The notes under the pieces were generated by a model, which saw only the letters and a list, made by a program, of their open reading frames with translations, was not told where the DNA came from and ran no database searches. Below are positions 1 through 42,115 of a stretch of DNA of 64,000 nucleotides, one piece after another (within the stretch, counting starts at the first letter, position 1; each line of letters opens with the position of its first letter). The translations under genes and the position numbers were made by a program. The DNA is taken from NCBI GenBank assembly GCA_017506865.1, contig JAFCMP010000046.1, positions 248,001-312,000 of the forward strand, written 5' to 3'. The DNA comes from Tribonema minus. Its lineage: Eukaryota > Sar > Xanthophyceae > Tribonematales > Tribonemataceae.

Positions 1-3000
1 GCCGCGCAGGCTGAACGCCGCGCGCTTCTCGCGGTACGCCGCGGCGCGCTTGCGCGGGCACAGCGGCGCCTTCTCCTTCCCCTTCTCCGCCGCCCCATCC
101 GCTGCCGCCGCGTGCTCACCCCCCTCCCCCTTCCCCGCCCCCTCAGCCCCCTTTTCAGCCCCCTTCCCGTCCGCCTCCGCGCCGGCATCGGCGGCATCAT
201 CGGCAGCATCGTCCTCTTCTTCTTCTTCGGCGTCGGTTGCGCTGCCCGTAACGGCTTTCTCCATCTGCGACGAGCCGAGGCAGCGCTCGGCGGCCCTGTC
301 GATGTCGTCGTCGTCGTCGCTTGCGTACGCGGTGGTCTGGCGGATGCGGCGGCGGTTGCGATGGCGGTGACAGCGGCGAAAAGGGCCACGTCATCAGCCT
401 TGCCGCGTGTACATGTGGTGACGCGCGCTCTATGGTTACGGTGGGCAGAGCAACACTTAAACATGCCGTGCCGCCAAGCACAAACGTCATGACATCTGTG
501 ACGCAGCTGCACTCAAGCGCCAGCTGTCGCCAGCAGCCGCTGCTGCCGCCATCAACACGCACGCACATGCGCACTGCATCACCGCCGAGCAAGCGCTGCC
601 GCAAGCTCTGCACTCACCAGGCTGCTGCCGCTGCCGCCGCTGCCGCCGCCGCCGCTGTCGCCCGCGCTCGTGCCGTCGCGCCACAGGTCCAGCGCAGCGC
701 GTGCGCGGCCGCCGCCGTGCTCATCGGCCAGCGCAGCAGCAGCGGTCTGCCGCCGGCTATCGCTCGCCGCTGCCGCCGCCACCGCAGCAGCGGCGGTCGC
801 GCTGCCGTTCGCGTCGGCTGCTGCGCCGCCGCTGTGCGCGCTCGCGTAGGCAGAGGCGGCGGCGTTGCGCACCGTGGCGAAGGCGGCGGCGGCGGCGGCG
901 GCCGCGGGCGTGTGTGCGCGCGCGTGCACCTCTGCTGCGCGGCGGCGGCGGGGCGAGGCAGCGCGTGAGATAGGGCTGCGGGTGCGAATGTTGCATGCAA
1001 AGTGAGCGTGCGCGCTGTCGCTGCGGCGGCGTCGCAGCCTGCCCATCACGCTTGCGCGCAGGGGCGACGGTCGTGGTGGTGCGGAGCGCACGGTGCAGTG
1101 TCCACGTCTGCGTGGGTGCCTTGTGAACCTGCGCACTGCAGAACCCGATTCAGGCAGTGGCCAGCATGGCGTGCGACGCACGCAGCGCTGCCGCGGCACG
1201 CACCTGAGAGCGGCGCGCTGCTGCTGCTGCTGCTGCCGCTGCTGCCGGTGAAGCTGCCGCTGGCGCGCTTCGCGGACGCGGCGCCGTCGCCTTTCCCCAA
1301 CGGTTCCGCGGGCGTGTTGGGAGCGCTGCCGCCACCGCCGCTGCCAGCCGCCGCCGCCTGCCAGCACATGACACGAGCGGCATCAGGCACGCCAGTTAGA
1401 TTGAGATTGTGAGACTGCGACATTTGACAGAATACGCCACCTGATTGTGTAGACCGCGGCGCTGCCGGCGCAGCTGCTGCGGATGAGTGGTGCGCGGCAG
1501 CCGTCGTCGGTGGCGTCGGCCGGGCTGACCACGTGTGTTCTGCGTGCGAAGCTAGCAGCAGCGTGTGTCAAGCTGTAGCGGCGCTCTTCGGTGCGCACGT
1601 TTCAATGCATGCACGCAATGCATGCCCTTGCAACCACACCCTGAGTGCAAGCAAGGCTGACACAGTCCTAAGACAAAAAAGGGTGCGTGTGGCTCCTGTG
1701 ACACCAATGCTGCCTTCAGCCGGCTGTGATGCGCCGTCAGACAAGCGCCGCATTCTGTCATGAGATTCTCAAACGAACTGCGGCAATGCAGCGATGGACT
1801 AAAGCGCGCAGGGCACGCCCTCGCCCCAGATCTACGATCACGCCTGATAACGTAGAGTAGCAACTGACCTTGCCATTTGCATGGCGCGATGCGCCCTTGG
1901 CGATGCCGTTCAGGGCACCTATGCGCGTTTGCCCGCGCCCGATGTCTGTCGGCGCGCGGCGCCGGTGGGCCTGCTGGGCCCTGTTGCGCACGCGAGCGGT
2001 GCGCGCAGCAGCAGCAGCAGCGGCGGCAGCATTAGCGGCGGCTACCATTGCAGCAGGTGTAGCAGCAGCAGCAGCAGCAGCAGCGCCAGCATCAATACGT
2101 GTCTGCCTCGGCAGAGCCATGGTGATGGCGATCGCGCAGCGTCAGCGACTGTGGCAGCGCCAGCTACCATGGCTGCAGCAGCAACGGCAGCAGCAGCAGC
2201 AGCACGCACACGCAGTGGCGCCGGCTGCTGCAGTCACCTGCGGCCTGTTTCCAACGGCGCGCAGCAACAGGCCGTTGGGCCACAGCTCGGCACGTCGCCG
2301 AAACAACAGGTGAAAAACCAGTTTCCAAAGTTCCACAACTGATTGTGTCTAAGGTAGAAGTATTATCACCAGGGGTGACAGCAAAAGAAACGCAAGGGGC
2401 AGAAGCCAACCTGCATCACCGCCAATGGCAGCAGCACTCACTCCTGCGCGCGCAGGCGCGAGCAGCATCGGCCGCCGCTCACCTCTTGTACGCCTCTGCG
2501 CGGCGGTAGTTGCCCCACACCATGCGCACAAGCCACGCGTGCACGGCGACGCACAGCAGCGACGGAGCTGCCAGCAGGACCATGAGGATCGCCCACCACT
2601 TGAGCGTAGTCAGCGGCGACACGCAGCCCTGCGTTTGGAATGGTGAGAGCACACGTGCTTCAGTGTAATGCTGTGGGCAGTGGCACTCGGTCAAAACGTG
2701 CACTCTACGGCAACTCCTGCCGTGTGCGAATGATGTGTTTGCAACGAACGGCGCCGCGGTGCGCACGCTGCGGCAGCGCTCAGATGCTTGAACCACGTCG
2801 TCGACGGCGCGCAGCGCAGCGAGAGGGGTTCACTGCTGCGTTGAGCCGCAACTTGAGCGTTACTGCACGAGCTGTCGACAGTGCCACGAGGTGTCCACGG
2901 GGCGTGCACCGGCCGGCCGCACACGGGGTGCGCGCAAGCACTCGTACACGCATGAACACACACCTGCACGCACATGCATGCGTGCAGCCGCGCCCACGTC

Positions 3001-6000
3001 TCTCAAAGGGCAGCAGCAGCAGCGTGCGGCGCACCTGCACACGTACCCACGTACATGTGCTCTCACATACACGCAAAAGCACCCATTAAAACCTCAGGCA
3101 GCGGCAGCAGCAGCGCACCTGCACGTCGTCGACCGCGCGCAGCGTCGCGACGTACGGCGCCATGAGTCGTACGCGCAGACCTTCATGCGCATGCATACAC
3201 GAATACGTATTCGACCCATGCCCACGCATAGATGCCTGCCTGCACATGCTAAACTGAATACATACCCACGTCCATGCGTGCATACGTGGCAAGATGCATA
3301 TGCGGCAGCGGCGCGCGGCGCACCTGCACGTCATCGACCGCGCGCAGCGCCGCGACGTACGGCGCCATGCACATGTATACACAAAGACATACCCTACCCG
3401 TGTCTATGCATGCATACCTACCACATGCTAACTTGAATGCATAGTATGACATACACACGTACACATGCATGCATGCATGCAAACGCCCCCACGCCTCAGA
3501 CAGCGGCGGCAGCAGCGGCGCACCTGCACGTCGTCGACCGCGCGCAGCGCCGCCACATACAACACGAGTTCAATTCCTACGGGAAGCACAATGTGAACAG
3601 TACAAAACAACTAGGCAGCAGCAGCAGCAGCAGCAGCAGCAAAAGCGCACCTGCACGTCGTCGACCGCGCGCAGCGCCGCGACGTACGGCGCCATGAGCG
3701 CCCACAGCCGCTGCAGCTTGCGCGCGAGACGGTTCGGCGAGAACACCTCGAGGCTCGGCTGGTACGGAGCATCTGGCCACAGGTGGCTCACGAGGTACGC
3801 GTCGCGCGCGACATCGAGCCGCAGCTGCAGGTGCACGAGGCCTAGCGGCGCAGCAAAGCCGGCGGCGCCGCTGCCGCGGTGGTGGAAGAGCAGCGACGGC
3901 ATGTGCAGCGCGGCGGCGAGGGGGCTCGCGTGCGCGCCGCGCTGCTGCTGCTGCGCCGCGGAGGAAGAGGACGTCGGCGTGCGCAGCGGCGGCGTCCGCG
4001 GCAGCGGCTCCGTGGCCGCCTAGAAGAGCATATGCGTGGGCAGCGGCGGCAGCAGCGGCGGCGGCGACGCAGTGAGCGGCGCCGTGCGGGGCTGGAGGCG
4101 AAGGTAGTGTAAGGTACAGTGTCAGGGGTGGCGGAGTGTGCTGCTGAGCTGTGGATGCTGTTGGCATGGGCCGCAGCAGCGAGCATCTGGAGACGTCCGT
4201 GCAGTGGCGACCATCGCCTTACAGTACAGCCTCATTGTCGGGGACCTCAAGTGTTGCATGTTGCGCAGCGCGGAGCAAAGTGTGGCCGCCGCCGCCGCCA
4301 TCACCACTGCTTCCGCGGCGTGGCGGAGGGCATGTGGAACAGGGCCAGATCAACTGACCAGCGGAATCTGCGGATGTGGCTGCAGTACAAAAGTGGGGCC
4401 ATATCATCTGCAGCGGCGGCGACAGCAGATCTGCGCATCGTGACAGACGTTTTTACGGGTCACCGCCGTGTCTCCGCCATGCGTTGTCTGCACAAGCCTG
4501 CACCGCGCAGCACACTACCATGTAAGGCATCAGCATCGTGTCCACGCCATGCGTTGTCTCCACAAGCCTGCACCACGCAACACAATACCATGTAAGGCAT
4601 CGGCATCATGCGCCACCTGCCGTCACACGCTGCACGTGCTCGTTCAACTGCAGCTGCCATTTCCCGACTACGCCTGCCAACGATAGTAGCGCCAATATGC
4701 ACGCCGATACACTCGCACCTGCTGCAGCCGCGGCGGCGGTGGCGATGCGAGCGGGTGGTGGTGCTGCTGCGCGCTGCTGCCGCCTTTCGCTCCGCCGAAG
4801 CTGCTGCCGTGCCGTGCAGACGTCAGGCTCGCTTCCGACGCCGTGTCGCTGCCGCTGCGCGCATAAGCAGCATGTGCAGACTTAGACCCCACCCTGCCGC
4901 CGCCACCGCCGCCGCCGCTGCTGCTGCTGCTGCCGGCCAGCGTTTTGCGCAGCTTGGACAGGCCGAGCGATGGCAGGCGGCGCGTTGGCGCCGCCGCCGC
5001 CGCTGCTGCTGCGGAGGGGCTTGCGGGCTCGCTGAGCCGCCGCATCGGCGGCGACGCCATCATCAGGGCCTGCGAGCGCAGCGCAGCGGCGCAGCATGCA
5101 CGTATGCGAGGTCACACGCGGCACTCAGAGGGGATGGCGCTGTCCACCACAGCGGAGTTGCCGTGCGGCAGTCAAAGGGAATGGCACTGCCCATCGCTGA
5201 GTCGGTGCGATGGCGATGGCCGCGCCAGCAGGGCCGGCGACACAGCACCAGAGGGATCGAAGGCGGCGCCGCCCGCTCAAAGGCACATGGCCAACATGGC
5301 AGAAGGTGGCGTGCACCAAAACAAATCCCAGATACAGCATGTACTCCTTGTGTACTGTAAACGCGATTCACAGTCCATGCGCGCACGGCAGCAACTGCCG
5401 TCTCACCTGCGACCCCACGGAGTGCGCCGCGCGCGAGCCCCGCGGCGGCGGCGACGGCGCCCTGTCGTCCCCAATGATGCCCGGCGCGCCGCCGCCGCCC
5501 GCCGTCCTCCGCGCCGCCGCCGCCGCCGCCGCCGTCGGCACCAGCGCCTGCGCCGACGTCGAGCGCGGCTGCGCGATCACCTGCCCTGGGCGCTGCTGCT
5601 GCTGCTGCTCGCTGCGGCCGCGCTTCTTCGCCGCCGCCGGTGTCGACCCCGCGCTGAAGCTGCCGCCGGCAGCAGTGGCGCCGTTGGCGGCAACAGCGGC
5701 GGCAGCGGCAGCGGCGCAGTTGGGCAGCTTGCCGCCATGGCGCGCGCGGCGCACGGCGGCGTGGGGGAGGGGGACCGCGGGGCAGGGGGGAGGGGGGAGC
5801 GCCGGCTGAAGGGGGTACCAGCGGTCGATGGTTGCGCCGGAGAGGAGCTCCTCGTCGAGGGTGATCTCGAGGCAGCCGAGGAGGTCGTCGGCAGACGTCA
5901 GGTCCTTGTCATAGAGCAGCACCTGTGAGGGGCGGGGGGATGGGAGGGGGGGAGTGGGGGGGGGGGGGGCACCCATTTGGAAGAGGGGGAGGGGAGGGGG

Positions 6001-7936: not shown

Positions 7937-8281
7937 ACTTTCTTCCTAAGCTCTCTGCTCACAGTCAACATTCAGGTACAGAGTTCATGGGCCTTCGTGC
8001 GGCTTGCGCGCACAATAGAGTTGGTAGGAGACACATCGTCGGCGCCCCGGCTACAGCTCCCCCTCAAGTGGCACAACCCGCAACTTCCCAGGCTTCTCAT
8101 GGGCCGATCTTGAAGTTACTCTTATCGCGTCATCCTGCGCTGAGTGTGTTGTTTGCTTTTCATGCTGTAAGCGGACAAGGACGCAGAGCGAGCAAGCTGC
8201 AGCAGAACAGAAGCTTACGCACGCACCTACCAACAGGCTGTGCAACAGACTTTCCTGCTGCATCTCGTGTTCTGAAGATCC
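7937..8281. promoter_or_regulatory. Divergent intergenic region, MCTP-like / HIBCH
   Basis: 345 bp between two start codons pointing away from each other. It should hold both promoters. No TATA box or other clear element stands out, and GC content is lower than in the flanking exons. Confidence 0.5.
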
Positions 8282-11200
8282 ATGCTGCTGGGTCGACTGC
8301 CAAGCAGCAGGATCGCATCATCGTCCAGTCACAGCGTTACGCTCAGCTTGGCTCGTTGCATCACGCATTGCCGCGCCATGAGCTCCGCCGGCAGCGGCAG
8401 CAGCACTGTCCTAACGGACCGCCAGGGAGGAGTAGCCACCCTTATCATGAACAGGGAGCGCGCCCTGAACGCTCTTTCCTTAAAGATGTGCACCTCGATG
8501 CACGATGCCCTTAAGCTATGGCTGCCGGATCCTTCGCTCAGGTGCTTGATCCTGAAGGGAGCGGGCACGAAGGCCTTCTGCGCAGGTGGCGACGTGAAAA
8601 GCATTGCCACGGAACAAGGGGCTTTCACACCAGGGCAGCCTGGCACTCTGAGATGTGACTTCTTCAGAGAGGAGTACAAGCTGGACTGGGCTCTGGCACG
8701 GGCCAAGGCGGTGGGTTCCAAGACGGAGGAGCCCGGTCATGTGTCCCAGGTCAGTGTAGATCCCCTTGTGCGTCAACAGCAGGCATGTGATCTGGATCAC
8801 CTGGCAGGCTGATGTGGGCGCATGTGGACAAGGAAGCAAGCAGCGGCCTACATGTGCAGACTTGTCAATGCAAGGCAACTGAGGGGTCGTGTGTCCAGTG
8901 CTGCTGTCTGCGGGCATGTCGCATTTGATGGGTGACTCGATGGTTGGCACTACAGATGGCCTGACAACCAAAACACACATGTCACCACACAGTCAGCGCA
9001 GCCGTGATTGGTAGCTTAGAACACGGCAGGTGTATCCTACCACCAACAGCCATGCCCGCATGCTGAAGACCCGGCTTGAACGTTGCGCCATCGTGGTCCG
9101 CTGTTGCACCAGTCATCAAGGAGCACTGACATCCACGATATCAGAGCAGCTGGAGGAACAGACGTGGTGAGGCGTGAAATGCCTCGCCACGGAAGCCCAA
9201 CTTCATGCACCACGCAGAACGATCCTGCGCGGCGCCGCACATTGCATCTTGCCGCTTCCATCTTGTGCTCCCTCGAGTCCTGGCAATGACGACCGCCACT
9301 GCTCTGCAAGATTTTGCACTGCAAGTCCCGTCATCACTCTACTCCTACCTTGCCGTCTTGTATGCCCCCCCCCCCTCCCAAGCATTCAACTGTCAGCTTA
9401 GCGTGCCCCCCCCCACCCCACCCCCCCCACCCACCCCCACACACACCCGCAGGTCTCCCTCTGGAACGGCATAGTCATGGGCGGCGGCGTGGGCGTCTCC
9501 ATCCACGGCGCGTTCCGCGTGGCGACGGAGACCACGCTGTGGGCCATGCCGGAGACCGCGATAGGGCTCTTTCCGGACGTGGGCGCGTCGTTCGTGCTCG
9601 CGCGCCTGCCGGGGGGGCTGGGGGCGTATATTGCGCTGCTGGGCGCACGGCTGCGCGCGTGCGACCTGCTGTACGCGGGCCTCGCGACGCACTGCGTCGC
9701 CGCGGACAGGCGAGTCACCGCGGCGCGCTTGGGTGTTAGGGTTAGGGTTAGCGCTTCTCGCGCCTTGTTCCGCCCGGGGCGCATATGCAGAGCGCGCCCG
9801 CCTGCCTCACGAGGTAGAGGGCGGCTCACAAACGTCTGACAGCGGCCGCGTGATGACTGCGTGGTTGCGGGCAGCGCGCTCAATTGGACGGGCGCAGTGC
9901 TCATGCGTCCCTTCAATGGGCTCAAATCCAAGCTCCCGGCGCTGGGAGCAGTGCTCAGCGGCGCGGTTGCGGCAGCCGCCCTCAGCTGTGCTCCGCCACT
10001 TGCGACTACATATGTGCTGCAGGCGCGCTTCACCGCGGCCGCAGCGGACGCCGACGCGGTGCTGTACAGCTGCGGCGGACGCGCCAACACAGACCTGCGC
10101 ACGCGCGCGAGCGTCACCATATTGGTCCCCCGGAAGGCTGTCAGGTGCCGGAGCGCTGACACGCACGCGAGCGTTGCAGCAGCTGCGCGGTGTCTGATGC
10201 GGCGTCCTGAGCTGTAAAGACCTGCTTTACTGCAATCTGCCTGACCAAACTTTTGATGCCGTGGAAGTCATGCGGTTACCGCGCCGCTCCGCCGCACGCA
10301 GGCTGCCGGCGCTGGAGGCGGCGCTGATAGACGCGGACGGGCGCGACGCGCCAGACATACTAGCGCGATTCAGCACCAATCGTTCACCACTATCCCCTGC
10401 TGCCGGACCTCCGATAGGCAGTCCTTTGCCAGGGCGCTGACACGCACGCAAGAGTCGCAGCAGCAGCTGCGTGGCGTCTGGCGCAGCGTCGCCGCTCCGC
10501 CGCGCGCGGGCTGCCGGCGCTGGAGGCGGCGCTGATAGACGCGGACGGGCGCGGCGTGCCGGACATCACGAGCGTCGCACTCCTCAGTTTCTTCTGGTCC
10601 CCGAACATTACGAGCGTCGCACTCCTCAGTTTCTTCTGGTCCCCGAACCCCTGATAGGCAGTCGGCTGCCGGGGCGCAGAACTTGCAGCAGAAAGCTCCG
10701 CAGCATCTGACGCAGCGCCGCCACGTGCCGCTCCGCCGCGCGCAGGCTGCCGGCGCTGGAGGCGGCGCTGATAGACGCGGACGGCCGCGACGTGCCGGAC
10801 ATCCTCGCGCGTTTCAGCAGCGCGCCGCCGCCGCCGCCCAAGGGCGGGCCCGTGCTGGAGCCGCACCGCGACGCGATAGACCGCTGCTTCGGCGGGAAGA
10901 ATGGTGTGGAGGGCGTGGTGGCGGCGCTGCGCGCGGAGGGCTCGGAGTGGTCGCGCGCGACGCTGGAGGCGCTGTTGAAGATGAGCCCGACGGCGCTCAA
11001 GGTGCGCAGTCATCTGTTGTACATTCTGTAGAAACGTGAAGCTTGTGCGCGATGTTGAAGATGAGCCCGACGGCGCTCAAAGGTGTGCGCATGTGTGTGT
11101 CGCATGGTCTGTAGAAGCTTGAGACTTGTGAGCTGGACGCGCTGTTGAAGATGAGTCCGACAGCGCTCAAGGTGTGTGCAAGTACATGTCGTTGAACCTT

Positions 11201-12002: not shown

Positions 12003-12684
12003 GGTAATTGGCTCCCCCGCCCCCCCCTCTCCCCCTCGTCTCGGTCTCCCCCCCCTTCCCCCCCTCTCAGCGCTGCCTCAGTGTGGAGTGTGGTGATGTA
12101 ACTATACGAAGGCTCATGATCATGCTCACAGGGGGTTGTCGGGCATACGCAGTTGCGTCGGCGAACAAGTGGCGTCGACGTGTTGTGCTGCGCGCGGGCA
12201 GTCAGCGTGCTGTCACACAAACCCACATGGGCGCTGCTACGGCAGCAGACGACGACCCACAGAGATGTTGTTGGCGAGAAATCCGGAACTGCAGTGCTCA
12301 GCAGCTTGCACTTGCGCTTTGCTCAGACGTTCACAGCTGCAGCATGGCCTCAGCAACGGCCGTCCCTTCTGGCATGGCAGCCTCAGTCTGCAGAGCGTAT
12401 GCAGCTGGCCTAGTGTTTGCCAAGCCTGTAGTGGGCACTGTGACACACCAAATGGTGACGATTGATCTCTGGCCCACCATGCCGCCCCATGTACAAGCAG
12501 AAGGGCAACGTCCAAGAGCCTTTGTTCGTTTTCAAAAGAATATATCACATTGATGTACAACACGACAAGTCTTTTAATAATTTCGTTGCTGATGTTCAAC
12601 TTGAACCCTGCACTGGTGACTCCCACTCTTGAAAGGTGCTCGAAGGAACACCAAAACCTGAGATGCCTTTTAGCATCATCAGTC
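12003..12684. other. Intergenic region after HIBCH
   Basis: Starts with a C-rich stretch (12011-12070) directly after the HIBCH stop, probably its 3' UTR. Base composition then falls. The frame entering the next gene is open from 12550, so the promoter or 5' UTR of that gene probably lies here. No further gene recognised. Confidence 0.5.
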
Positions 12685-15673: not shown

Positions 15674-21727
<6,054 letters not shown>

Positions 21728-31000: not shown

Positions 31001-34000
31001 TTCGCCGTCAGAGTTATGGTGAAGTTTTGGATTGGCCAGCTAATTCACACGAACCTGCATGGCGCTGAATGACAGGCCTCACAGCCGTCGTGGCTAGCGA
31101 AAGCCCTACCCCTAAGCTGCCGCCGTCCGCTGCAACTTAGGGTTAGGGTTAGACTCAACGCAGCATCAAAGCACCACATAAATGGTGCATCACCACAGGT
31201 CATCGCTTTCTGTTAAGAGCATATGGCAGTCACATGCTCATTGCCGTTTGCACGCCTGACGGTTACGGCAGTTTCACAAGCCGGCACACAGACCAGAATA
31301 CAAGCACTCCAAGCATCACACCACTGGCGTCGGTCTTCTGTTGCAGTGGTCACCATGATGTCTTCCCCTGTCAGTGTGGAGCAATAGGCTAGTGAGCAGC
31401 AGCTCTCTACGTTGCAACACTCCCCACCCTCAGTGCTGCCAGGCCAGCCTGGTGTGATACAGCTCTGTAGCAGGCACACACACGACGGGAAGCGGTGTAA
31501 CGTGCAGCTGCATCGACTCATTTCCAAATCGAGTCACGCGTGTGCATCGCTGCCAATTGTGCACGCATGCGCGCAATCCTGTACACCTGACTGCACGTCC
31601 GAGGTATACGTAGAAGGCCGGAAGATCTGGTGAACCCAAGCGCAGGGCGAACGTTCAAAGCGACGGCGGTTGCGGTTTTGCAGCACGAGTGGAGGTGCCC
31701 TGATCTCTCCATCGCATGTAGGAATAGATTGCTGCTTGTGGCCATCACATGTAGTTTTCCTTTGCTGAGTTTGGCGGACCATGCAGGAACGCACGGCAGA
31801 TGTAGCTTAAAGTTAACCCTACCTCCAACCTAACCCTAATCCTAAGAGCCGCTAGGACTCACACCGCGCACAACGCGCTCGCCCCCTCCCTCGAACTGTC
31901 CAGACCGCGGCACTGCTCCGTGCAGACGCGATCACACCGTGGCCCGACTGGCTGACCGTAACACTCACAACAGTTGCAGCGCAGCATGCGGAACGCCGCC
32001 TTTGTATGTGCAGAAAGCCACTGGACTCATCGCACAACGCTTCTACGTTTCCATCTCCGCTGCGCGCCCCGTTACAGGTGCTGCGTCAGGGGGACTACAT
32101 TGGCGCATGCACCCTTGCGCCGTCGCTGCGGAAGTGCACGCCGACCGTCGCCGTCGTCGAGCCGGGGCGCGTCGCCGTGTACAAGGGCAAGGTAATAACG
32201 CGCGGTGACAATTGATGCAGTGACGAGCGCCTGCGGGTGCAGTGCTCATTAGTTGTCGGCGCTTGTGAAGGCATGATGGAGGCGCATTGAAGTGATTTCA
32301 GTGCAATGCCGGCCGCTGTAGGACGCCCTGTAAAATGCTGCGAGCTGCGGTCGCGCTCTGTGTAACATGCTGAAAATCACTACCATTGCGCACACCAGGT
32401 GTTCATATGTCGAGTGCATAGCAACGCTGCTGGCCGCGTATTGGCATGTCTCTGTGTCCCAGGGGCACCCATTGGCATGTGCGCACTGCAGCATGTGGAG
32501 ATGTCCGCCGCGTGCCGCACATTTGCTGTTGCAGATAAACTCACCATCGTGAGCCGTGCAAGTCATGAACCGACATGCGCAGTGCTCAGTAGTTGTCGGC
32601 GCTTGTGAAGTTATGCACGGAGGCTGCGGAGATGCGATTTCTGTGCACTGCCGGCCGCTGTAGGATGCCCTGTGAAATGCTGTGAGCTGCGGGTGCACGC
32701 TGTGTGACATGCTGAAAATTGCTACCTGTGCGCACACCAGGCGTTTCATGTGTTGATGGCATCTAATGCCAGACTGTTGCAGACGAACTTGCCATCATTG
32801 GCCGCTCACGTCATAAACTGACATGTGCAAGTGCGTCTGTGCCATGTCAAAGGTGGAGCTCGCTCTGAGAGTGTGTGGCCAGTCTGTCTGCATCTGTGCC
32901 GAGAGGTTGTCAGTGGCATTGCTGACATACTCATTGCTCTCTTGTCTGATTGCGTGGTGATTCGCGCAGCACCCTATGGACGAGGCGAAGGAGCTGCTGT
33001 GGGCAAGGTGAGAGACGATTGCGCATAATTCAAAGTGCTTGAAGCACGCAAAACGTGTTGGTGCCAGAATTCATCTGCTTTCAGACCGCTTGAGCCTGTG
33101 AAACCAGTGCAGGCATTGAGAGGGGGTGTTGCACGCGCCTGTGAAGTGGTACAGGGGCTGATCATGCAAGCTTGAAAGTGCATTCTTCATGCACTTGAGC
33201 ACTTGATTTGCGCAAGTTTCGAGGGTACTTGGGCCCAAGTGAGCACTGCAGACCTCGCCTGCCGTTGCTCACCGCTTGTGCCATGCCACCAGCCCATGGC
33301 CATGGCGCCAGTGAACGTGTGCAGTGACAGGGGGAGGAAGCGCTGCACAACCTACATGCTGCCTTGCAATTTCCCACGGACTGAGCAGCAGTCAGTTGCC
33401 TGATTCAAACGCCCTATGCTCTCACCGCCGGTGCAGCGCCAAAGCGCAGCCCGCTAAGAGCGCCGGGGAATGGGCTGCCGTTGTGCACGACGCTCACACA
33501 CCGTCACTGCATGACGTTCCTGTCCCAATCATCATTTCGCACACAGTCCGTCAGTCAGTGTCTAGTCCTGGCCATACCCTGTCCCCCGTGCCGCCGCCAC
33601 TGCCGCCGCCGCCGCAGCGCCGAGAAGGAGCAGCCGGCCAAGAGCGCAAGCGGCTGGGTCGCCGTCGTGCGCGACGACGGCACACATTCTTCGCATTGAC
33701 GTTTCTTTTCTTTTAGGCAGTCAATGCTGACCTTGCCCCCCGCGCGCCGCCGTAACTGCAACGCAAAGAAGGAGCAGCCGGCCAAGAGCGCAGACGGCTG
33801 GGTCGCCGTCGTGCACGACGACAATTCACCATCACCGCACAATCATATCCGGGTCACCGTTTTACGGGCACAGTCATTCAGTCAGTGTTCAATCCCGACC
33901 TTGCCTGCCTCCGCGCCGCCGCTGCCGCCGCCGCCGCAGCGCCAAGAAAGAGCAGCCGGCCAAGAGCGCGGGCGGCTGGGTCGCCGTCGTGCGCGACGAC

Positions 34001-34351
34001 GGCACACAATCTTCGCATGACATTTCTTTTCTTGTAACCGCCTTGCGCACGCAGTCATTCAGTCCATTTTTCAATCCCGACTTTGCGTTGCCCCTGTGCC
34101 GCCGCCGCCGCCGCCGCAGCGCCAAGAAGGAGCAGCCGGCCAAGAGCGCGGACGGCTGGGTCGCCGTCGTGCGCGAGGACGGCACGCTCGCGCTGCAGGA
34201 CGGCGCAGACGCGCGCAAGCCCGCGTGGGCGTCCAAGCTGAGCGGCGCCGCACGGCGTGCGCGCTCGTTCATGGTGCGCGCCGTCGTGGAGGACGGTGAA
34301 CTCGCGCTGTACCGCTCCGGCGTCCTGGCGTGGTCGTCCAAGTCGGCGTGA
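22051..34351 (+). CDS. TRIC-like cation channel with bulb-lectin-like C-terminus
   Basis: Eleven exons join in phase to 467 aa: 22051-22114, 24482-24701, 26155-26272, 26881-27117, 27848-27934, 28861-28908, 29504-29596, 30551-30703, 32078-32191, 32970-33007, 34120-34351 (TGA). Exons 2-5 give about six hydrophobic spans, e.g. LVALIFTGCLKV, PLVNDAIFTLLIVIWLLFY, YPVPLLGPIIVGLMRGAGG and CVIVVFFLVMNVLQ. The order, the HPVHDFVHTF segment and the (K/R)GAGG motif match trimeric intracellular cation channels, which pass K+ across ER membranes. Exon 8 adds another span (KGAFIIGVMTAVVYQWL). Exons 9-11 hold three beta-type repeats (AVVEPGRVAVYKG, AVVREDGTLALQDG, AVVEDGELALYRSGVLAWSS) like bulb-type lectins, with the mannose motif degenerate. 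The exon 7 donor is GC (AAG|GCAAGC). All phases agree, but exons 8-11 could be a separate gene. Confidence 0.6.
23987..24470. repeat. Poly-C rich intron segment
   Basis: Several C runs of 10-24 bases (24000-24012, 24274-24310, 24410-24426, 24452-24464) alternate with ACCTACATACC and ACATGCACATACATACC blocks. They form extended pyrimidine tracts before the repeated acceptors of exon 2. Confidence 0.9.
24206..24530 (+). repeat. Three copies of the TRIC-like exon 2 acceptor edge
   Basis: GCGCAGGCGAGGTG and the following codons (encoding EVCLVALIFTG) begin at about 24206, 24346 and 24476. Each is preceded by CATACCCCCC-type poly-C and by CAAGTGCACCGTACCAACC. Only the third copy continues into the full exon. 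The first two still have CAG acceptors in the right phase. Confidence 0.9.
24851..24868. repeat. Interstitial TTAGGG repeat
   Basis: TCAGGGTTAGGGTTAGAG lies in intron 2 of the TRIC-like gene, with degenerate GAGGGT units on both sides. Confidence 0.8.
25675..25710. repeat. Head-to-head interstitial telomere repeat
   Basis: TTAGGGTTAGGGTTAA runs directly into ACCCCTAACCCTAACCCTAA: G-rich units then C-rich units on the same strand. This is the orientation expected of two fused chromosome ends. It lies in intron 2 of the TRIC-like gene. Confidence 0.92.
26241..26751 (+). repeat. Tandem duplication of exon 3 donor edge plus R1 repeat
   Basis: The end of exon 3 (encoding NVCVFTDKAFK, then AAG|GTGCGTGCACACA) and about 160 bp of intron recur at about 26563-26751 (encoding SVCVFKDKALK, AAG|GTGCGCGCACACA). 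Each copy contains a shortened R1 element (26297-26430 and 26628-26750), so R1 was present before the local duplication. Confidence 0.9.
27055..27225 (+). repeat. Tandem duplication of exon 4 donor edge
   Basis: The 3' end of exon 4 (encoding LWHLAVNDPYV and GALQ, then CAG|GTGAGA) and about 35 bp of intron are repeated at about 27152-27250 with few differences (period about 97 bp). Two further remnants with TGAAGCCGGGGGGG-like sequence follow to about 27375. Confidence 0.9.
27623..27642. repeat. Interstitial CCCTAA repeat
   Basis: CCTAACCCTAACCCTAACCC in intron 4 of the TRIC-like gene. A degenerate CCCTAA stretch also occurs at 27979-28000. Confidence 0.9.
29562..29900 (+). repeat. Copy of exon 7 donor edge and GATGAGCATCAT array
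   Basis: The exon 7 end (encoding SFKGLYDLHLRRK) is followed by an array of about 24-bp units containing CATGATGAGCATCATCACGC (29633-29860). A second copy of the exon edge then encodes GFKGLYDLHPRRK at 29862-29900. The true exon end uses a GC donor; the copy has the canonical CGGAAG|GTGAGT. Confidence 0.88.
30258..30291. repeat. Interstitial TTAGGG repeats
   Basis: GTTAGGGTTAGGGTTAG and a nearby GGGGTTTAGGGTTA in intron 7. Another short tract, GGTTAGAGTTAGGGTTAG, sits at 30517-30534, just before the exon 8 acceptor. Confidence 0.88.
31137..31152. repeat. Interstitial TTAGGG repeat
   Basis: TTAGGGTTAGGGTTAG in intron 8. A degenerate C-rich counterpart (AACCTAACCCTAATCCTAA) is at about 31827-31846 in the same intron. 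Confidence 0.88.
32226..32825 (+). repeat. Two diverged tandem copies of about 340 bp in intron 9
   Basis: Both copies begin with GCAGTGCTCA(T/G)TAGTTGTCGG and share GCCGGCCGCTGTAGGA, CATGCTGAAAAT and GCGCACACCAGG, ending with a GTTGCAGA(T/C)(A/G)AACT block. Copy 1 is about 32238-32575, copy 2 about 32578-32825. No exon is included. Confidence 0.85.
33430..34190 (+). repeat. Five copies of the terminal exon acceptor edge
   Basis: GCCGCAGCGCCAAGAAGGAG and the following codons (encoding KKEQPAKSADGWVAVV) occur at about 33436, 33618, 33755, 33938 and, as the true exon, 34120. Spacing is about 135-185 bp. Copies 1, 2 and 4 keep a CAG acceptor; copy 3 reads GTAACTGCAAC there. Each early copy reads through GWVAVV(R/H)DD and then diverges. 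Intervening DNA shares GACGTTTCTTTTC-like and CAGTCA(A/T)T blocks. Confidence 0.92.
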
Positions 34352-36104: not shown

Positions 36105-39100
36105 TCATTCGGCGGCGGGCGGCCTGCGCCCCTCGTCCGCGATCTGCCACGCGACGTGCTCGCCCGCGCGCAGCGGCACGACCTCGCTCGCACCAAAGGC
36201 GTAGCTGGCGGGCACGCGCCACGGCTCGCGCGCGAGCGTCACGGTCGCGGCGTTGCGCGGCAGCCCGTAGAAGTCTGCGCCGCGCTGCGAGCAGAACGCG
36301 CCGAACTGGCGCAAGTAAGGGAGAGGGGGGGCAAGGGGGCGGGGGGGGGAGGGGGGTATCAGGCAATAGAGGTAGTATTGGTGCATGCATATCGGGCGAT
36401 CGATGAGCGTGGGCGTTGCGCGGCAGCCCGTAGAAGTCTGCGCCACGCTGCGAGCAGAACGCGCCGAACTGGCGCCGACAACGGACAGGGGGGGAAAGAG
36501 GGGGGGGGATTGTCAGGCAAAAGTATTGGACCGAGCGATCGACGAGCGTGTGCATTGCGTGGCAGCCCGTAGAAGTCGGCGCCGCGCTGCAAGCAGAATG
36601 CGCCGAACTGGCGCCGATAAGAGAGAGGGGGGAGGGGGGAGGGGGCGGGGGGGGGGATGAGGCAAAAGTATTGGTGCATGCATATCGGGCGATGCATAAG
36701 CGTGGGCGGAGGAGCGTTGTCGGCAGGGTTGCGGAAGGACACATCAAGAACCTTTTGTTTTTGCACCAAAAATGTGATTGGCCGCAATGCCGGCCGCAGA
36801 TCACATGGCATGCGCAGGTTGTACGCCTTACTCGTGCATCGCCATGCATCACCATTTGAGAACATGCCTGCAACAGCACCATGCGCACACAAATTGACCG
36901 ATCACACAAACACACCCGCAGGGGCCCCTGCGCGTCCGCCCCCAGCCCCACACTGACGGCGCAGGGCGCACACAAGAAAGCGCACACAAGCACCGGCGCA
37001 GCGCGAACTCGACCACTACATAGCACGATTGCAGGACACGCGAGCACAGCAGCGCTCAGCACGCGCAGCGCTCAACAGCGCTCGGCACGTGCGGCAGCGT
37101 TTGGTGGAAGGCACTTGCGGCCAACCACGCCCCGTCACCTAGAGCTCTACGATCTTTTTACACGTTTCCAGCGTATAACTTCAAGTATACTCCTGAAAGT
37201 AGTACTTGAAGTGCACGTCCGTTTCCATGAGTGGCAGCGCTCAACATACATGCGGCAGCGCTCAGCCATTCTCACCGAGTCCAGCGCTCCCGCCGCGTCA
37301 AACACCTCCGCGTAGAGCTCGAGCGCGGCGTGGCCGGAGAAGATGCCGGCGCAGCTGCAGCGCGCCGCACACATGCACAGCAGACACAAGCAAAGGCAAG
37401 GTGGTGTTAAGACAGGTGTTTGAAAGAAGGCCCGGCGCACCTGCGGCGGCGCGCCGCGCGAATGCGCGGCCGACACGGGCGGAGGACAATGTGTAGTCAG
37501 ACAGGTGGTTGACGGACGGCGTTGATGGAGGGCCGGGCGGCTTCACACCTGACATGCGGAGGACAAGGGGTGTTTGGACAGGCGTCTGACGGACGGTGTT
37601 GAGGGGCGGTAACTGCCATTGACTGTGCAAGGTACATGGCGGCTGGTCTGCCTGTGGGCCACGAGTTCTCCAACTGTGTGCTGACCAGGGTCAGAGCATC
37701 GCCTATTCTGGAGTGCGGTGTGACAGCCCGAAGCAGGATATCTGAGAAAAACGCGCTTGACGTCCCGCTACAGCCTGCGCACAGCGTGGACCAGCGTGCT
37801 GCAGCAGCAGAGCTATGCGTATATACGCGGAGAGCACAGCCATGTGCGTCTGAGTACGTGTATTCGCCACCTCTCCAGCCGCCATGCCTGGAGGTACAGA
37901 TTCAATTTTGCACGCGCGCGTTTGGCATATCATGTGCCTGTGCTGCTGCGCGAGCGAGAGTCTGGCGTGCACAGGCCGCAGCGCCACGCTCGTGGTCTGC
38001 GCTTCACCTAACCCTAACCCTAACCCTAACCCAAAACACGCAGCATGCAGCGCAATACGCCGTAGGTACACAACACGAGCATAATCGACGCCCAAGTCAG
38101 CGCAAGCAAACGGCGGCACACGACTGCCTCCGCCCGCGACAAAGCGTGCAGATGAGTCCATGTACATGAGAAGAGCGCGAATCCTCACCCGCACGCGCTC
38201 TCCTTGGCGCCGCGCGCGTGCGGCGCGCTGTCCGTCCCGAGGAAGATCTTGGCGCTGCCGCTCGTGGCAGCGCCCACCAGCGCCAGCCGGTGCTCCTCGC
38301 GCTTGAGGATGGGCAGGCAGTACATGTGCGGCCGCACGCCGCCCCTGAAGATCTGCGGCGGCGGCGGCGGCAGCGGCGGCGGCGGCAGCGCGCAGCAGTG
38401 CTCAGCGGCGGCTGTCGGTCTTGCTTGGAGTGATGCGTTGCTACAGCGCGGCATGCGAGCGTGCTGTGTGGAAATGTGGATGGTGCGTTGCGCAGTGCGA
38501 AGCGCGGCGCGAGTGCAGCAGCGCTCAGGGGCATCAGCTGCCTATACCGCCAGTGACACGCGTAGCGGCATGGGCATTGGCGTGCTGCTTTGCCACAGCA
38601 GGTGGCAGCCGTCGTGAGGGGCAGCGTGCGCGTAGACTTGACCCGCGTGCAATAAACTGTTGACGCCATAAACGGCTGCGATACGCATATGATGAGCACG
38701 CGGCGGCGGCACATAAACGCTCTAAGATGTTTGGCGCCGCATGAGCAGAGAGAGCGCTCACCTCATTCCTGTTGTACAGGAGATGCTGCGGCGTGATCGT
38801 GGCCGCGACGTTGGGCCCGCTGCTGAGGACAAACTCCGCCGCCTGCAGCACCACAACACGCAAGCGACGCATGATTTATGAGCTGAGCGTTGCTGCAACG
38901 GCACGCATCTGTCATCACGGCAGCAGTTCTGAGCAGCGGGCACAGGCACTGGTCGATACTACCGTGCATGCGTTGAAGTATCATGTTAAAGTAATCGATG
39001 CGGTTGCGCTGTGCAGATTCCTGCGCGCACGTGCGCCGTCTTGCGGTCAAGCAACGGACACGCCGCAACAACGGCAGTCCTGTCGCTGCACTTGAGCCGC

Positions 39101-42100
39101 AGCTCTCAGCCCGGTGCCATGTGCAGCTGACGCGGTGCGTTCGCATGCAATGTGCGACCGCGAGCAGTCCCATGCAGCCATCACAATAATGTTTTGAGCA
39201 CATGTCTGGTGTCAGAAATCGCCGACATATCTTGTATCTGGTGTCAGAAATCGCTGGCATGTCTTATTGCAGTGCGCCCGGCGACTGCCTTCCATGCAGC
39301 GCATGCCTGGAAATCGGCGATTGCATTGCATGCGGAAGAAGCGATGCCGCCTGCTCACTGCTCGTTGACGAGGAGAGTCGCTCGCCTCTTTTGCGGCGAT
39401 GTGCTCCGCGCGACAACCTTGAGGTTGGGCAGTTACACACGCAACCGCAACTGCTCGCATGAGCGCTCTGGCACGTCCCAGTCGTCAGTCAGGTGTTGCC
39501 GACCTCAAGATTGTATTGCCAATCGCGCAGTGGCGACCTTGCGCATTACTGTGACCACTTCCCCGAAGAAAAGTCGATTTCACCGGCTGTTTTTTGCTTG
39601 GTGGCATAAAATGTCACTCGGCGACGGGCCTTGCGCGTCTTTCTGAAGAAATATCAAAGGTCACCGGCCGACTGTGTTTCTTGCTTGGTGCACGGGGAGA
39701 GTCACTTACCTCTTTTGTGGTGATGTGCTCCGCGACGACCTTGAGGTTGGGGAAGCGCGCCACCAGCGGCCCCAGCACCTCCTCCACGAAGCGCGCCTCC
39801 TTGTCGAAGATGTCGACGTGCGACGCCGTCTGTGAGAGGCAAGAGCGCAAGGAAGGGCGAGGCGCGCACACCGGTCACCCATTGGCTGAAGTGAACGATC
39901 TGTCATCAACGTCTGTGAGAGGCGAGAGCGCAACAGGGGCGCAGCATACATGCCGGTCACCGATTGCGGCGGCTGGAGGAAGACAACCCTGCCAGAAAAT
40001 TTAACTTGAGGTGCCGTGCAGTGGAGCGTCCCCAGCGATCGGTTGGAGTAAGAACGCAGCGCACTTCAACTGGCGAATGTTATACAGGCTGTGGGCTGGG
40101 GTGCGACGGGGGCGCACCGCATAGTAACCTTGTCATAAACGGCAAAACGGCCTGCGGCCGCCATTTCGGAAATTGACTGTTAGAGTATGGAAGGGCTGTT
40201 GGCGCGGAACCTGCAGCACTGCACCGCACAAGACGTATACCTACCTCCGTGCATGCTTATGCAACGCAGTGCTCAATTACAGCATCATACCCGCTGTGAA
40301 GCGACGTGATGCTTGTGTTCGCACCATGCCACCGCCACACCCATGAAACTACGGCATCACTCAGGCGGCAGCGCTCACCACTTCGCCGTGCACCAGCAGC
40401 GCTCAACAGCTGCATCACAGCGCGCAGGCAGCAGCAGCGCTCAGCTCACCACTTCGCCGTGCACCAGCAGCGGCATGCCGACCTCCGCCATGGCCTCCAG
40501 CACAGGGTACACCTGCAGTAAGCAGAGTGCAGCAGCAGTGCAGCAGCGCTCAGTCCATAAGGCGATGATGCTCAACGTTGGTGTCATGATGTGTTGCGCG
40601 AAGCGCAGTAGCAGCACCCTAAGGCCAGGCACTGCGTGGCGGAGCGGCAGCAGCACCCGGAGTGAGGATTTCGCCGGCATGAAATGAACCGTCCATCAAC
40701 TGGCAACAGCGGTCATGCTATGCGTCCTCCACGCTCTGTCGACCACAACGCAAGGCCAGCGCTGCCACCTACATACAGAGGTGAAGTCGGTGGGCAACGG
40801 CAGCATTCCCAGGAACCGAATCTCGTTTGCACAGCGGCTGCAAGGCGCAGCAGCACCAGCGCCTGGACATCCTGAAGGTCCATCGTGACACACTGCATCG
40901 CCGCCGACCGACTGACCGCACCTTTGCAAGGTCCGTGACCCCGGAGTCACTGTTCGTGGTGGCGCCCGCGGGGTACAGCTTGACGGCGTGCACGTGGCCG
41001 CTCTTCCGCGCCTGGTGAATCTCCTCAGCGTCCGTATGGTCCGTCAGGTACAGCGTCATGAGCGGCTCAAACTCCACGCCCGGCGGCACGCACGCCAGTA
41101 TGCGGTCCCTGGCACGGCGGCGCACGAGTCAAAACACGCGGCATTTTGTTTTCAGAGCGCGCGACATACGGCTGGTGAGAAGAGCTTCGTTGTGCAGAAG
41201 TTTAACGCGCGGGGGTGCTGAGGGGCCGGCACCAGAGCGCAGGTGCGCGCATGGCCGCAGACTCTCAGCAGGCGCGCTATCGTGCGCGTACACATTACAT
41301 GGACGGTGAAGGGCCAGGATGCGGTCCCTGGATACTAACGAGCCGCATCATTGTTGCGTGTGCAGCATGGATGGTGAAGGGCGTCCTTGTGCAGAGGCAT
41401 GATAGACAGAGGTGCGGGATGGCAGGCACAAGTGCGCAGACGTGCACTTGTCTGCAGACCGGGCGTGCTAGTGTGCGCATACTGAACCTGCGAGTTGCAT
41501 CATGCAGGAACAATGCGTGCGTGTTTGCAGAGGTGTGTGGGGGAAACCAGGGATGCGAAGACACGCAGAAGCAGACGCACCTGTAGGCAAGAGCCTCTGC
41601 CGTTGTGGTCACAGGTGGCTTCAAGTTAGGCATGGCGATCTGCGAAAACAGAGGTCAAAAAAAGGACATGTGAGCAACTTCAAGGCCATCTCACGACGAA
41701 TTTATGCACTTCATGCGCCCGCAGCGAAAGTATGATGATGCAAGCTGCACTCACTGACCATGTAATATAGTCGCTGCTCACGCCCTTTGAATGCAACTGC
41801 ATGAAGTGATCTTTTTCAGATCTTCAAGATCCACACATGAACTATTAAGCACGAATACATCAGCCAGCGAGCTTACAGCGACTGCGCTGCACGATAAAAA
41901 AACTAATCTTCATAGCGCCAACCACGAAATTGCGCTGAGCCTTCACTCACCGCCCTCCGAAACATCCTGGCAGCGTGAGGCACCGTGTGTTGAAGGACAT
42001 CGCCATCTCTGAAGTGATGGTGGAAGTCATCTGCAACCGCAATGGTCAGGCGAGAAGTAGCAGCTGCAGCCATGCTCAAGCTTCGCCTCGGTACCCCCAG

Positions 42101-42115
42101 CGCTCGCAGCAGCAT
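36105..42115 (-). CDS. pyrC: Dihydroorotase (PyrC type)
   Basis: Nine exons join in phase to 372 aa: 42115-41951, 41639-41581, 41108-40922, 40512-40450, 39829-39710, 38842-38762, 38352-38189, 37354-37276, 36305-36105. It closes carbamoyl-aspartate to dihydroorotate in pyrimidine synthesis. Every metal ligand of the bacterial/plant monofunctional type is visible: HxH in [11 protein letters not shown], the carboxylated Lys in [17 protein letters not shown], His in MPLLVHGEV and in VAEHITTKE, Asp in [10 protein letters not shown]. The remaining sequence follows E. coli PyrC closely ([48 protein letters not shown]). E. coli PyrC is 348 aa; the extra length is N-terminal ([15 protein letters not shown], alternative start at 42073) and may be a short organelle-targeting segment, plus a Pro/Ala tail. 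Exons 4, 5 and 9 have duplicated edges in adjoining introns. Confidence 0.95.
36244..36640 (-). repeat. Three copies of the dihydroorotase exon 9 acceptor edge
   Basis: The exon 9 start (encoding [20 protein letters not shown] on the minus strand, acceptor CAG at 36306) recurs near 36420-36475 and 36556-36620. Each is followed on the plus strand by a G-rich run (GGGGGGAAAGAGGG type) and TGCATGCATATCGGGCGAT. Period about 140-150 bp. Both copies keep the AG. Confidence 0.9.
37098..37171 (+). repeat. Dispersed repeat family R1, partial copy 5
   Basis: Shares TTGGTGGAAGGCACTTGCGG, then CACCTAGAGCTCTACGATCT with the other copies; the 5' half is missing. Confidence 0.85.
37475..37615. repeat. Tandem duplication of about 75 bp in intron 7
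   Basis: Two copies containing GGCGGAGGACAA / TGCGGAGGACAA, GACAGG(T/C)G and TGACGGACGG(C/T)GTTGA. They lie on the upstream (sense) side of dihydroorotase exon 8. Confidence 0.75.
38007..38032. repeat. Interstitial CCCTAA repeat
   Basis: Four perfect CCTAAC units (CCTAACCCTAACCCTAACCC and on) within the intron between dihydroorotase exons 7 and 8. It is the longest uninterrupted single-orientation tract in the window. Confidence 0.92.
39206..39437 (-). repeat. 32-bp tandem repeat and a copy of the exon 5 donor edge
   Basis: CTGGTGTCAGAAATCGC opens two 32-bp units at 39206-39237 and 39238-39269. At 39366-39437 the plus strand repeats CTCTTTTG(C)GG(C)GATGTGCTCCGC and CCTTGAGGTTGGG, a diverged copy of the exon 5 end (true edge 39710), with its donor region altered to CGCTCGCC. 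Confidence 0.8.
40371..40402 (-). repeat. Copy of the dihydroorotase exon 4 donor edge
   Basis: CTCACCACTTCGCCGTGCAC on the plus strand is identical to the true exon 4 end and donor at 40445-40464. It lies about 75 bp further into the intron, so two identical donors compete. Confidence 0.88.

What the first reader, a model, noticed from the sequence alone, without database searches (positions are those of the whole stretch)
1..42115. Recurrent tandem duplication of splice junctions inside introns
In at least five independent genes, an exon edge with its splice site is repeated 2-5 times on the intron side. Seen for donors (MCTP-like exon 6, HIBCH exon 3, PKA exon 7, TRIC-like exons 3, 4 and 7, dihydroorotase exons 4 and 5) and acceptors (HIBCH exon 3, PKA exon 4, TRIC-like exons 2 and 11, dihydroorotase exon 9). 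Copies never include the whole exon. This implies an ongoing mechanism that targets exon-intron boundaries, lengthens introns and leaves arrays of competing splice sites. Tandem duplication is a known route to new introns, but this density at existing junctions seems unusual.
Basis: partly seen in the sequence, partly recalled or inferred. Interest (0 to 1): 0.9.

Follow-up and report, generated by a model that had tools for sequence, protein, structure and literature searches.

The report
Tandem copies of splice junctions
In this alga's genome about one exon-intron boundary in nine has worn partial copies of itself in the neighbouring intron, left by repeated short tandem DNA duplications that land at boundaries somewhat more often than chance would give.

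Summary
Of 13 named junction duplications, 12 appear in local self-BLAST; the other (PKA exon 7 donor) is a short copy seen by eye. The pattern is wider than the window: 36 of 324 junctions in 344 kb carry copies at 50 bits or more, and 10 of 14 other 20-kb stretches have at least one. These are local, mostly tandem DNA duplications (periods mostly 80-331 bp). Exon-derived bases are 90.5% and intron bases 77.3% identical to the original, as for neutral copies of a constrained exon. "Targets boundaries" is only partly supported. Junction-spanning clusters number 35 of 60, against 10.1 expected from random placement in the same genes. Some of that excess is ascertainment: judged by intron bases alone it is 18 of 46 against 14.7% (P=4.5e-5; random sample 13 of 36, P=0.001), and a stricter positional count gives 12 of 46 (P=0.09). 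"Never a whole exon" was not tested: my filter drops such exons. Best reading: recurrent tandem duplication with a modest junction bias, tolerated because the first donor and last acceptor still give the normal mRNA. Use of decoy sites is untested.

The parts
3098..3698 (-). C2/MCTP-like exon (3651-4019): donor edge, real copy about 3630-3698, three more copies at about 3501-3560, 3304-3369, 3098-3166; exon part 37-48 bp
10282..10819 (+). HIBCH exon 10746-11001: acceptor edge, real plus two upstream copies (intervals 208 and 236); one copy has lost its AG
10962..11191 (+). HIBCH exon 10746-11001: donor edge, real plus two copies (period about 80-90)
   Evidence: one of the two copies also
16362..16547 (-).
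17025..17055 (-). PKA-like exon 17244-17396: short decayed copy of the donor edge, read by eye, not returned by BLAST
   Evidence: sequence
19297..19490 (-). PKA-like exon 19213-19307: acceptor edge duplicated (period 108), exon part about 11-13 bp
24131..24516 (+). TRIC-like exon 24482-24701: acceptor edge, three tandem copies (period about 138), last one real
   Evidence: sequence
26238..26748 (+). TRIC-like exon 26155-26272: donor edge, second copy 331 bp away, 92% identical; the intron part resembles a dispersed element (by eye)
27054..27369 (+). TRIC-like exon 26881-27117: donor edge in tandem (period 98)
29560..29899 (+). TRIC-like exon 29504-29596: exon edge copied 302 bp away up to the donor (real donor GC, copy GT)
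   Evidence: sequence
33425..34185 (+). TRIC-like last exon 34120-34351: acceptor edge, real plus four upstream copies (intervals 144-181; the furthest scores 43 bits)
36249..36708 (-). Dihydroorotase exon 36105-36284: acceptor edge, real plus two copies
39359..39751 (-). Dihydroorotase exon 39710-39829: donor edge, copy 324 bp away (GT in the real site, GC in the copy)
39827..39966 (-). Dihydroorotase exon 39710-39829: 3' end of the upstream intron duplicated (offset 83, 48 bits), reaching only a few bases into the exon
40373..40472 (-). Dihydroorotase exon 40450-40512: donor edge, copy 71 bp away, 29 of 29 identical
4467..4610 (.). Intron-only tandem duplication (period 70), a comparison case
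23909..24118 (.). Intron-only duplication next to the TRIC array, comparison case
25967..26136 (.). Intron-only duplication (offset 126, 45 bp aligned), comparison case
28947..29295 (.). Intron-only duplication (period 181), comparison case
32239..32762 (.). Intron-only duplication (offset 340, copies about 160 bp apart), comparison case

Best explanation
The arrays are products of ordinary short-range tandem duplication of DNA, with periods mostly of 80-330 bp, that recurs in this genome's introns and also spans exon-intron boundaries. The duplication rate at or within about 100 bp of a splice junction appears 2-4 times that elsewhere in introns. A duplication across a donor leaves the original donor first, and one across an acceptor leaves the original acceptor last, so the normal mRNA can still be made and the duplication is tolerated; duplications inside exons mostly are not. 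The extra copies then decay neutrally inside a longer intron, while the constrained real exon keeps its exon-derived half recognisable for longer. SHOWN: copies are local, many in strict tandem, of many ages, junction-spanning more often than random placement gives, with divergence ratios of neutral copies. INFERRED: that the duplications come from end joining at staggered or paired nicks, that the junction bias is mutational, and that the normal site is still used.
For: Periods and tandem layout. Spread: 36 of 324 junctions at 50 bits or more. Excess over same-gene placement: 35 of 60 against 10.1; with detection odds doubled in favour of junctions, 16.6. With exons of LLR at least 20: 23 of 45 against 5.9; without the window and the richest stretch, 9 of 18 against 2.7; without two more rich stretches, 5 of 13 against 2.0, P=0.025. 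Simulated neutral duplication with constrained exons gives 14.5-20% junction-spanning among detected. Detection by intron bases only: 18 of 46 against 14.7%, P=4.5e-5; random sample 13 of 36, P=0.001. Neutral copies: exon part 2573/2844 identical, intron part 4166/5388 identical, a divergence ratio of 2.4, stepping up at the junction. Donors and acceptors are hit alike (20 and 17). Intron-only clusters also lie close to junctions more often than expected (gap of 50 bp or less in 8 of 25, expected 2.8). End joining of breaks with protruding ends makes tandem duplications in mouse cells (PMC5730883, abstract and passages). Other traces that break repair could leave: 23 short telomere-type runs, none in predicted exons, and rbcL-like pieces in nuclear contigs.
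Against: By the stricter positional rule with intron bases only, the excess is 12 of 46 against 17.4% (P=0.09), and in the random sample alone 7 of 36 (P=0.44). With only the exons masked, coverage in the sample is 3.5% at 0-25 bp from the junction, 5-6.6% at 25-300 bp, and 1-1.7% beyond 400 bp: a broad rise near exons rather than a sharp peak. With only exons of LLR at least 40 kept, 4 of 22 against 1.9, P=0.11. Exon parts are shorter than uniform breakpoints would give (mean fraction 0.37, KS P=9e-4; simulated median 65-70 bp against 44 observed), which the explanation does not predict by itself. Donor copies keep GT/GC more than neutral decay predicts. Exon calls come from my own HMM, without RNA, and the window's exons were curated by hand after the duplications had been seen. 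CDS start and stop boundaries are hit in 2 of 43, too few to say whether splicing matters.
Confidence: 0.52

Rival explanations
1. Uniform tandem duplication plus ascertainment. Duplications fall evenly over introns and junctions; the constrained exon anchor makes junction-spanning ones detectable for much longer, and those inside exons are purged. No junction bias exists.
For: With all exon-derived bases masked and classification by position, the random sample shows 7 of 36 against 17.4% expected, P=0.44. With exons masked the junction itself is no peak. Exon parts diverge less than half as fast as intron parts.
Against: Simulated neutral decay with constrained exons does not raise the junction fraction above about 0.20. 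Doubling the detection odds still leaves 35 of 60 against 16.6. Array membership with intron-only detection gives 18 of 46 against 14.7%.
Confidence: 0.27
2. Exon-driven duplication. Exons (GC-rich, transcribed) duplicate at a high rate throughout; those inside exons are removed by selection, so mainly units reaching into an intron survive.
For: 11 of 64 clusters in the random sample are classed inside an exon despite selection, some of them with the other copy outside a trusted exon. Of the 8 sample clusters whose best pair lies wholly or almost wholly in predicted coding sequence, 7 have offsets divisible by three (read). Junctions with copies have a larger exon-intron GC step (0.130 against 0.099, P=0.012).
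Against: Units are mostly intronic: median exon part 44 bp, intron part 84 bp, and exon parts are shorter than uniform. Intron-only units are hardly GC-richer than their introns (0.594 against 0.580). Most exon-internal repeats are low in complexity (entropy column).
Confidence: 0.12
3. Selection keeps decoy splice sites. Duplications are even, but copies of junctions are favoured or maintained because the extra donors and acceptors regulate splicing or unproductive transcripts.
For: Donor copies keep GT/GC in 32 of 32, while acceptor copies lost AG in 7 of 29 (Fisher P=0.004; per array 0 of 20 against 6 of 16, P=0.004). Mismatch at donor positions -5 to -1 is 3.7% against 6-13% further into the exon.
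Against: Overall divergence fits neutral copies. Acceptor copies decay at about the neutral rate. Copies of one array are not independent, and aligned copies had to span the junction.
Confidence: 0.07
4. Assembly artefact: false tandem expansion.
For: None found; raw reads were not available. One short window copy (29 bp) is identical to its original.
Against: Pair identities at 37 junctions run from 66 to 95%, and copies carry private indels, which false expansion of one sequence would not give.
Confidence: 0.02

Closest known systems
Tandem genomic duplication as a route of intron gain (Rogers model; reviewed in PMC3443670, passages seen)
   Same: Short tandem duplication inside a gene that multiplies splice-site sequence and can leave the coding sequence unchanged.
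   Different: The model duplicates an exonic AGGT to create a new intron. Here existing introns are extended; 0 of 162 introns show the in-register donor/acceptor repeat that the model predicts.
Potato RdRp intron gained by a tandem duplication (PMC4974935, passages seen)
   Same: In the passages seen, the new intron inherited its 3' signals, branch site and flanking exon motifs from a parental intron-exon junction: the anatomy of the acceptor arrays here.
   Different: One case in one gene, and the copy became a new intron with a cryptic donor. Here copies lie at about one junction in nine of those examined, often several, and a new intron was not shown.
Ubiquitous internal gene duplication (Gao and Lynch 2009; not held; known here from citations only)
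   Same: Duplication within genes as a general source of gene-structure change.
   Different: I could not read the paper. The passages that cite it mention segments containing entire introns; partial exon edges left in introns as arrays are not mentioned there.
Introners (PMC9860276, abstract start and one passage seen)
   Same: Recurrent addition of spliceable sequence to genes.
   Different: Introners are transposable elements that copy themselves into many genes. These copies derive from the gene's own neighbouring junction; the one 3.4-kb array region tested has, besides itself, only 41 short matches confined to two spots of the query.
Tandem duplications from end joining of breaks with protruding ends (PMC5730883, abstract and passages seen)
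   Same: Direct tandem duplication at the break site.
   Different: Experimental Cas9-nickase breaks in mouse cells; no link to splice junctions.

Membership tests
Tandem genomic duplication (Rogers-type intron gain) | Direct tandem repeat within a gene | tested here: met
Tandem genomic duplication (Rogers-type intron gain) | New intron bounded by the two copies of an exonic AGGT (offset equals intron length, both junctions covered) | tested here: not met
   0 of 162 introns; donor-window against own acceptor-window scores no higher than with shuffled partners
Junction-spanning tandem duplication (potato RdRp type) | Unit contains a splice junction with flanking exon and intron sequence | tested here: met
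   36 of 324 junctions at 50 bits or more
Junction-spanning tandem duplication (potato RdRp type) | Copy is spliced as a new intron or exon | not testable with these tools
   no RNA data
Introners | Many similar introns dispersed through the genome | tested here: not met
   one array region only: 1 self match and 41 short matches (about 43-74 bp) to two spots of the query, 29 of them within the first 700 bases of a contig
End-joining tandem duplication | Duplication at a break, unit = protruding segment | tested here: inconclusive
   tandem layout seen, but some copies are spaced; breakpoints were printed and microhomology was not scored
Assembly artefact | Copies (near) identical | tested here: not met
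   exon part 90.5%, intron part 77.3% identical over 70 copies

The most novel reading that the evidence does not exclude
A mutational process in this alga is directed at exon-intron boundaries: splice junctions, donors and acceptors alike, are duplication hotspots several times hotter than the rest of the intron. It feeds introns with tandem decoy splice sites of all ages, of which the donor copies are kept functional, and so is a standing supply of raw material for alternative splicing, intron growth and intron gain.
Probability: 0.33. Interest if true: 0.8.

Novelty: new variant of a known kind. Interest (0 to 1): 0.52.

Why it matters
If about one junction in nine carries decaying duplicates of itself, this genome is a natural series of the first steps of intron lengthening, alternative-site birth and possibly intron gain by tandem duplication. 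It would let one ask directly whether splice junctions are mutational hotspots, how cells choose between near-identical competing sites, and how fast decoy sites are lost. If the excess proves to be ascertainment, it is still a warning: constrained exon edges make neutral intronic duplications look targeted.

Tried and rejected
Rejected or superseded: (1) The first distance profile counted array copies as originals and gave a falsely flat curve; replaced by the unit-level profile (sample, exons not masked: junctions 26 of 236; intron coverage 11% at 0-25 bp falling to 1.1-2.4% beyond 200 bp, before correcting for exon-anchored detection). (2) The first placement null used the aligned length as the unit, which understates it; replaced by period-based nulls. 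(3) The first gene finder, strands decoded apart, fused genes; replaced by the joint-strand model. (4) Introns born by tandem duplication: none in register among 162. (5) GC-driven duplication: intron-only units are hardly GC-richer than their introns. (6) A long coding exon of the window found one hypothetical protein only, with 7994 candidates scored, so it did not name the organism. (7) No Rfam match at gathering score and no ARAGORN tRNA in the window. (8) Literature: the listings of searches (titles and starts of abstracts) and the passages I read of seven papers (PMC3443670, PMC4974935, PMC4202315, PMC9860276, PMC10946897, PMC9756366, PMC5730883) show no description of junction-centred duplication arrays. 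I read no paper whole.

Rows dropped before counts: of 343 HMM exons, 142 were not trusted; the filter drops exons lying wholly inside a duplication, so whole-exon duplications could not be counted and clusters there pass as intron-only. Duplications with trinucleotide entropy under 3.6, under 50 bits or further apart than 1500 bp were left out. Clusters that touch a trusted exon without spanning a junction, or with a period over 500 bp, were left out of the 60. The 69-bp array at 60315-62083 was left out of the intergenic coverage. The TRIC exon 24482 acceptor (first exon of the model) and exon 29596 donor (alignment ends at the edge) are not in the 41 junctions. Dinucleotide counts use 61 of the 70 copies, those at 50 bits or more, with two window junctions shifted by one and two bases to their true site.
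Full report
WHAT WAS GIVEN. The window is G000:C46:248001-312000 of a eukaryotic genome of 158.2 Mb in 554 contigs. Two short stretches in other contigs match the large subunit of RuBisCO. Read by eye they look like red-type (form ID) plastid rbcL fragments in otherwise nuclear sequence, so the host is probably an alga with a red-derived plastid; a haptophyte is my guess from recalled sequences, not a test. A published Pavlovophyceae genome has 165.4 Mb and 55.2% GC (PMC9756366, table seen), which is similar but proves nothing. Three attempts at an 18S search did not complete.

GENE MODELS. With no annotation, I wrote a 13-state splice-aware hidden Markov model, seeded with exons read by eye and trained on the window plus 200 kb of the same genome (a first version was dropped), then applied it to 80 kb more. 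The joined exons give an unbroken 260-aa kinase (PF00069, 1.8e-58), HIBCH (PF16113, 4.4e-84, exons 2-4), a C2-domain protein (PF00168, 1.4e-21), and a TRIC-like and a dihydroorotase-like protein whose Pfam scores fall just under cut-off (PF05197 24.9 of 25.9 bits; PF04909 23.6 of 26.4). The trained sites are AG|GTGMG donors, 21% of them GC, and a GCAG| acceptor. Of 343 exons, 201 were trusted, giving 162 introns with a median of 849 bp. The window's exons were then curated by hand, after the duplications had been seen; the 280-kb sample was not curated.

THE OBSERVATION. Local self-BLAST confirms 12 of the 13 junctions named; the thirteenth is a copy of about 30 bp visible by eye. Aligning each junction with its own intron in 344 kb (window and 14 stretches of 20 kb), 41 of 324 junctions carry at least one copy (70 copies in all), 36 of them at 50 bits or more; 10 of the 14 stretches hold at least one. 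Donors and acceptors are hit alike (20 and 17). Nearest-copy offsets run from 80 to 331 bp with one of 735; arrays have up to six extra copies. In several arrays the copies share nearly the same exon-side end (for example 52-55 bp in L017_L018, 61-66 bp in the last TRIC exon), as if one duplicated unit was then amplified; in others they differ, and some copies are spaced rather than adjacent. Median exon part is 44 bp, median intron part 84 bp.

NATURE OF THE COPIES. Against the real junction, exon-derived bases are identical in 2573 of 2844 and intron bases in 4166 of 5388. The divergence, 9.5% and 22.7%, differs by a factor of 2.4 and steps up at the junction. That is what neutral copies give when one partner, the real exon, is held by selection. 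It also supports the placing of the junctions and argues against false assembly.

IS THE JUNCTION TARGETED? The raw excess is large. With each in-gene cluster placed at random in its own gene, keeping its period and forbidding units inside exons, around whole exons or over more than one junction, 10.1 junction-spanning clusters are expected of 60 and 35 are seen; doubling the detection odds for junction-spanning ones raises the expectation to 16.6. The excess survives stricter exons (LLR at least 20: 23 of 45 against 5.9), removal of the window and the richest stretch (9 of 18 against 2.7) and of two more rich stretches (5 of 13 against 2.0, P=0.025), and weakens to 4 of 22 against 1.9 (P=0.11) when only exons of LLR at least 40 are kept. 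A simulation of uniform tandem duplication with neutral decay and constrained exons yields 14.5-20% junction-spanning among detected. Coverage by single units falls from 11% at 0-25 bp to 1.1-2.4% beyond 200 bp in the random sample; with exons masked the same profile reads 3.5% at 0-25 bp, 5-6.6% at 25-300 bp and 1-1.7% beyond 400 bp, a broad rise near exons.

THE BIAS TEST. A conserved exon edge helps detection, so I masked all exons of the model and the exon-derived parts of the 70 copies and repeated both search and simulation. Classified by position (alignment reaching within 15 bp of a junction), 12 of 46 clusters are junction-spanning against 17.4% expected: P=0.09 overall, P=0.019 in the window (5 of 10) and P=0.44 in the random sample (7 of 36). 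Classified by membership of a known junction array, 18 of 46 against 14.7%: P=4.5e-5, and 13 of 36 in the random sample, P=0.001. I take this as a real but modest bias of about two- to four-fold, with some doubt left. Intron-only clusters also sit within 50 bp of a junction more often than expected (8 of 25 against 2.8). Boundaries of coding sequence that are not splice sites are hit in 2 of 43, too few to decide.

That no copy holds a whole exon I could not test: the trust filter drops exons lying wholly inside a duplication. Random placement would in any case give only 0.4-0.7% of such units. Exon-interior copies in introns are rare (2 pairs, both in junction arrays), which tandem geometry nearly requires. 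Exon parts are shorter than uniform breakpoints predict (mean 0.37 of the possible length, KS P=9e-4; simulated median 65-70 bp). Either the process sits at the junction, or long exon copies are selected out.

DECOY SITES. At 50 bits or more, donor copies keep GT or GC in 32 of 32 (one of them changed from GT to GC), while acceptor copies have lost AG in 7 of 29; per array 0 of 20 against 6 of 16 (Fisher P=0.004). With about 10% change per base, some six donor losses would be expected. This is unexplained. Copies of one array are not independent, and alignments had to span the junction.

MECHANISM. Local and mostly tandem layout, many ages, both kinds of junction and no dispersed relatives of the one array region tested beyond short repeat matches point to local DNA duplication rather than introners or RNA copying. 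End joining of breaks with protruding ends makes such duplications in mouse cells (PMC5730883, abstract and passages). The genome shows other traces that such repair could leave: 23 short telomere-type runs, 19 in introns, 4 intergenic and none in predicted exons, and the rbcL-like pieces. Why junctions should be hit more is not known; junctions with copies have a larger GC step (0.130 against 0.099, P=0.012). Microhomology at the breakpoints was not scored.

COMPARISON. Intron gain by tandem duplication is known (PMC3443670, passages), and the potato RdRp case (PMC4974935, passages) has the anatomy of the acceptor arrays. No intron among 162 here shows the Rogers signature. The listings of searches and the passages read show no description of junction-centred arrays at this density; Gao and Lynch 2009 was not readable, and most subscription papers are not in the library.

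Noticed in passing
window 17516-17705; look-alike pieces near 26290-26417, 26640-26748, 35127-35196, 37101-37170 (by eye; the last two pair): A dispersed element of about 185 bp: besides itself, the 39 other scored copies in the genome are 88-92% identical (2087 first-look candidates, 40 scored); no Rfam or tRNA match in the window.
   Followed up: partly
window 9736, 25675, 25693, 27628, 30259, 31137, 38012 and 16 more runs in the sample: Interstitial telomere-type runs (TTAGGG/CCCTAA, 12-24 bp): 19 in introns, 4 intergenic, none in predicted exons; none in one Markov sequence of 344 kb.
   Followed up: partly
L033 1501-1689 and L034 1501-1650: Pieces that read like red-type plastid rbcL in otherwise nuclear contigs, apparently inserted plastid DNA.
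   Followed up: partly
junction copies in window and sample: Donor copies keep GT/GC (32 of 32) while acceptor copies lose AG (7 of 29): unexplained asymmetry.
   Followed up: partly
window plus 200 kb of sample: About 21% GC donors and a strong GCAG acceptor in the trained splice model, which itself allows only GT and GC donors.
   Followed up: no
contig pairs C90/C179 and C144/C223 (C278): Kinase hits recur with like scores, in the same order and with similar spacing: probably haplotigs or recent duplications, useful for comparing array copy numbers.
   Followed up: no
window 60315-62083: Array of a 69-bp unit, about 20 copies in its main block plus about 5 just before it, outside predicted genes.
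   Followed up: no
L031 about 5088-5162 and 5241-5286: Two short stretches of a junction array, rich in degenerate CCCTAA-type sequence, match 41 other places, 29 of them within the first 700 bases of a contig: telomere-like repeats within a gene region.
   Followed up: no
L015_L016 9868-10139 and L011_L012 17030-17379: Duplications in which the HMM calls coding sequence in both copies: possible whole-exon or larger duplications that my exon filter partly hides.
   Followed up: no
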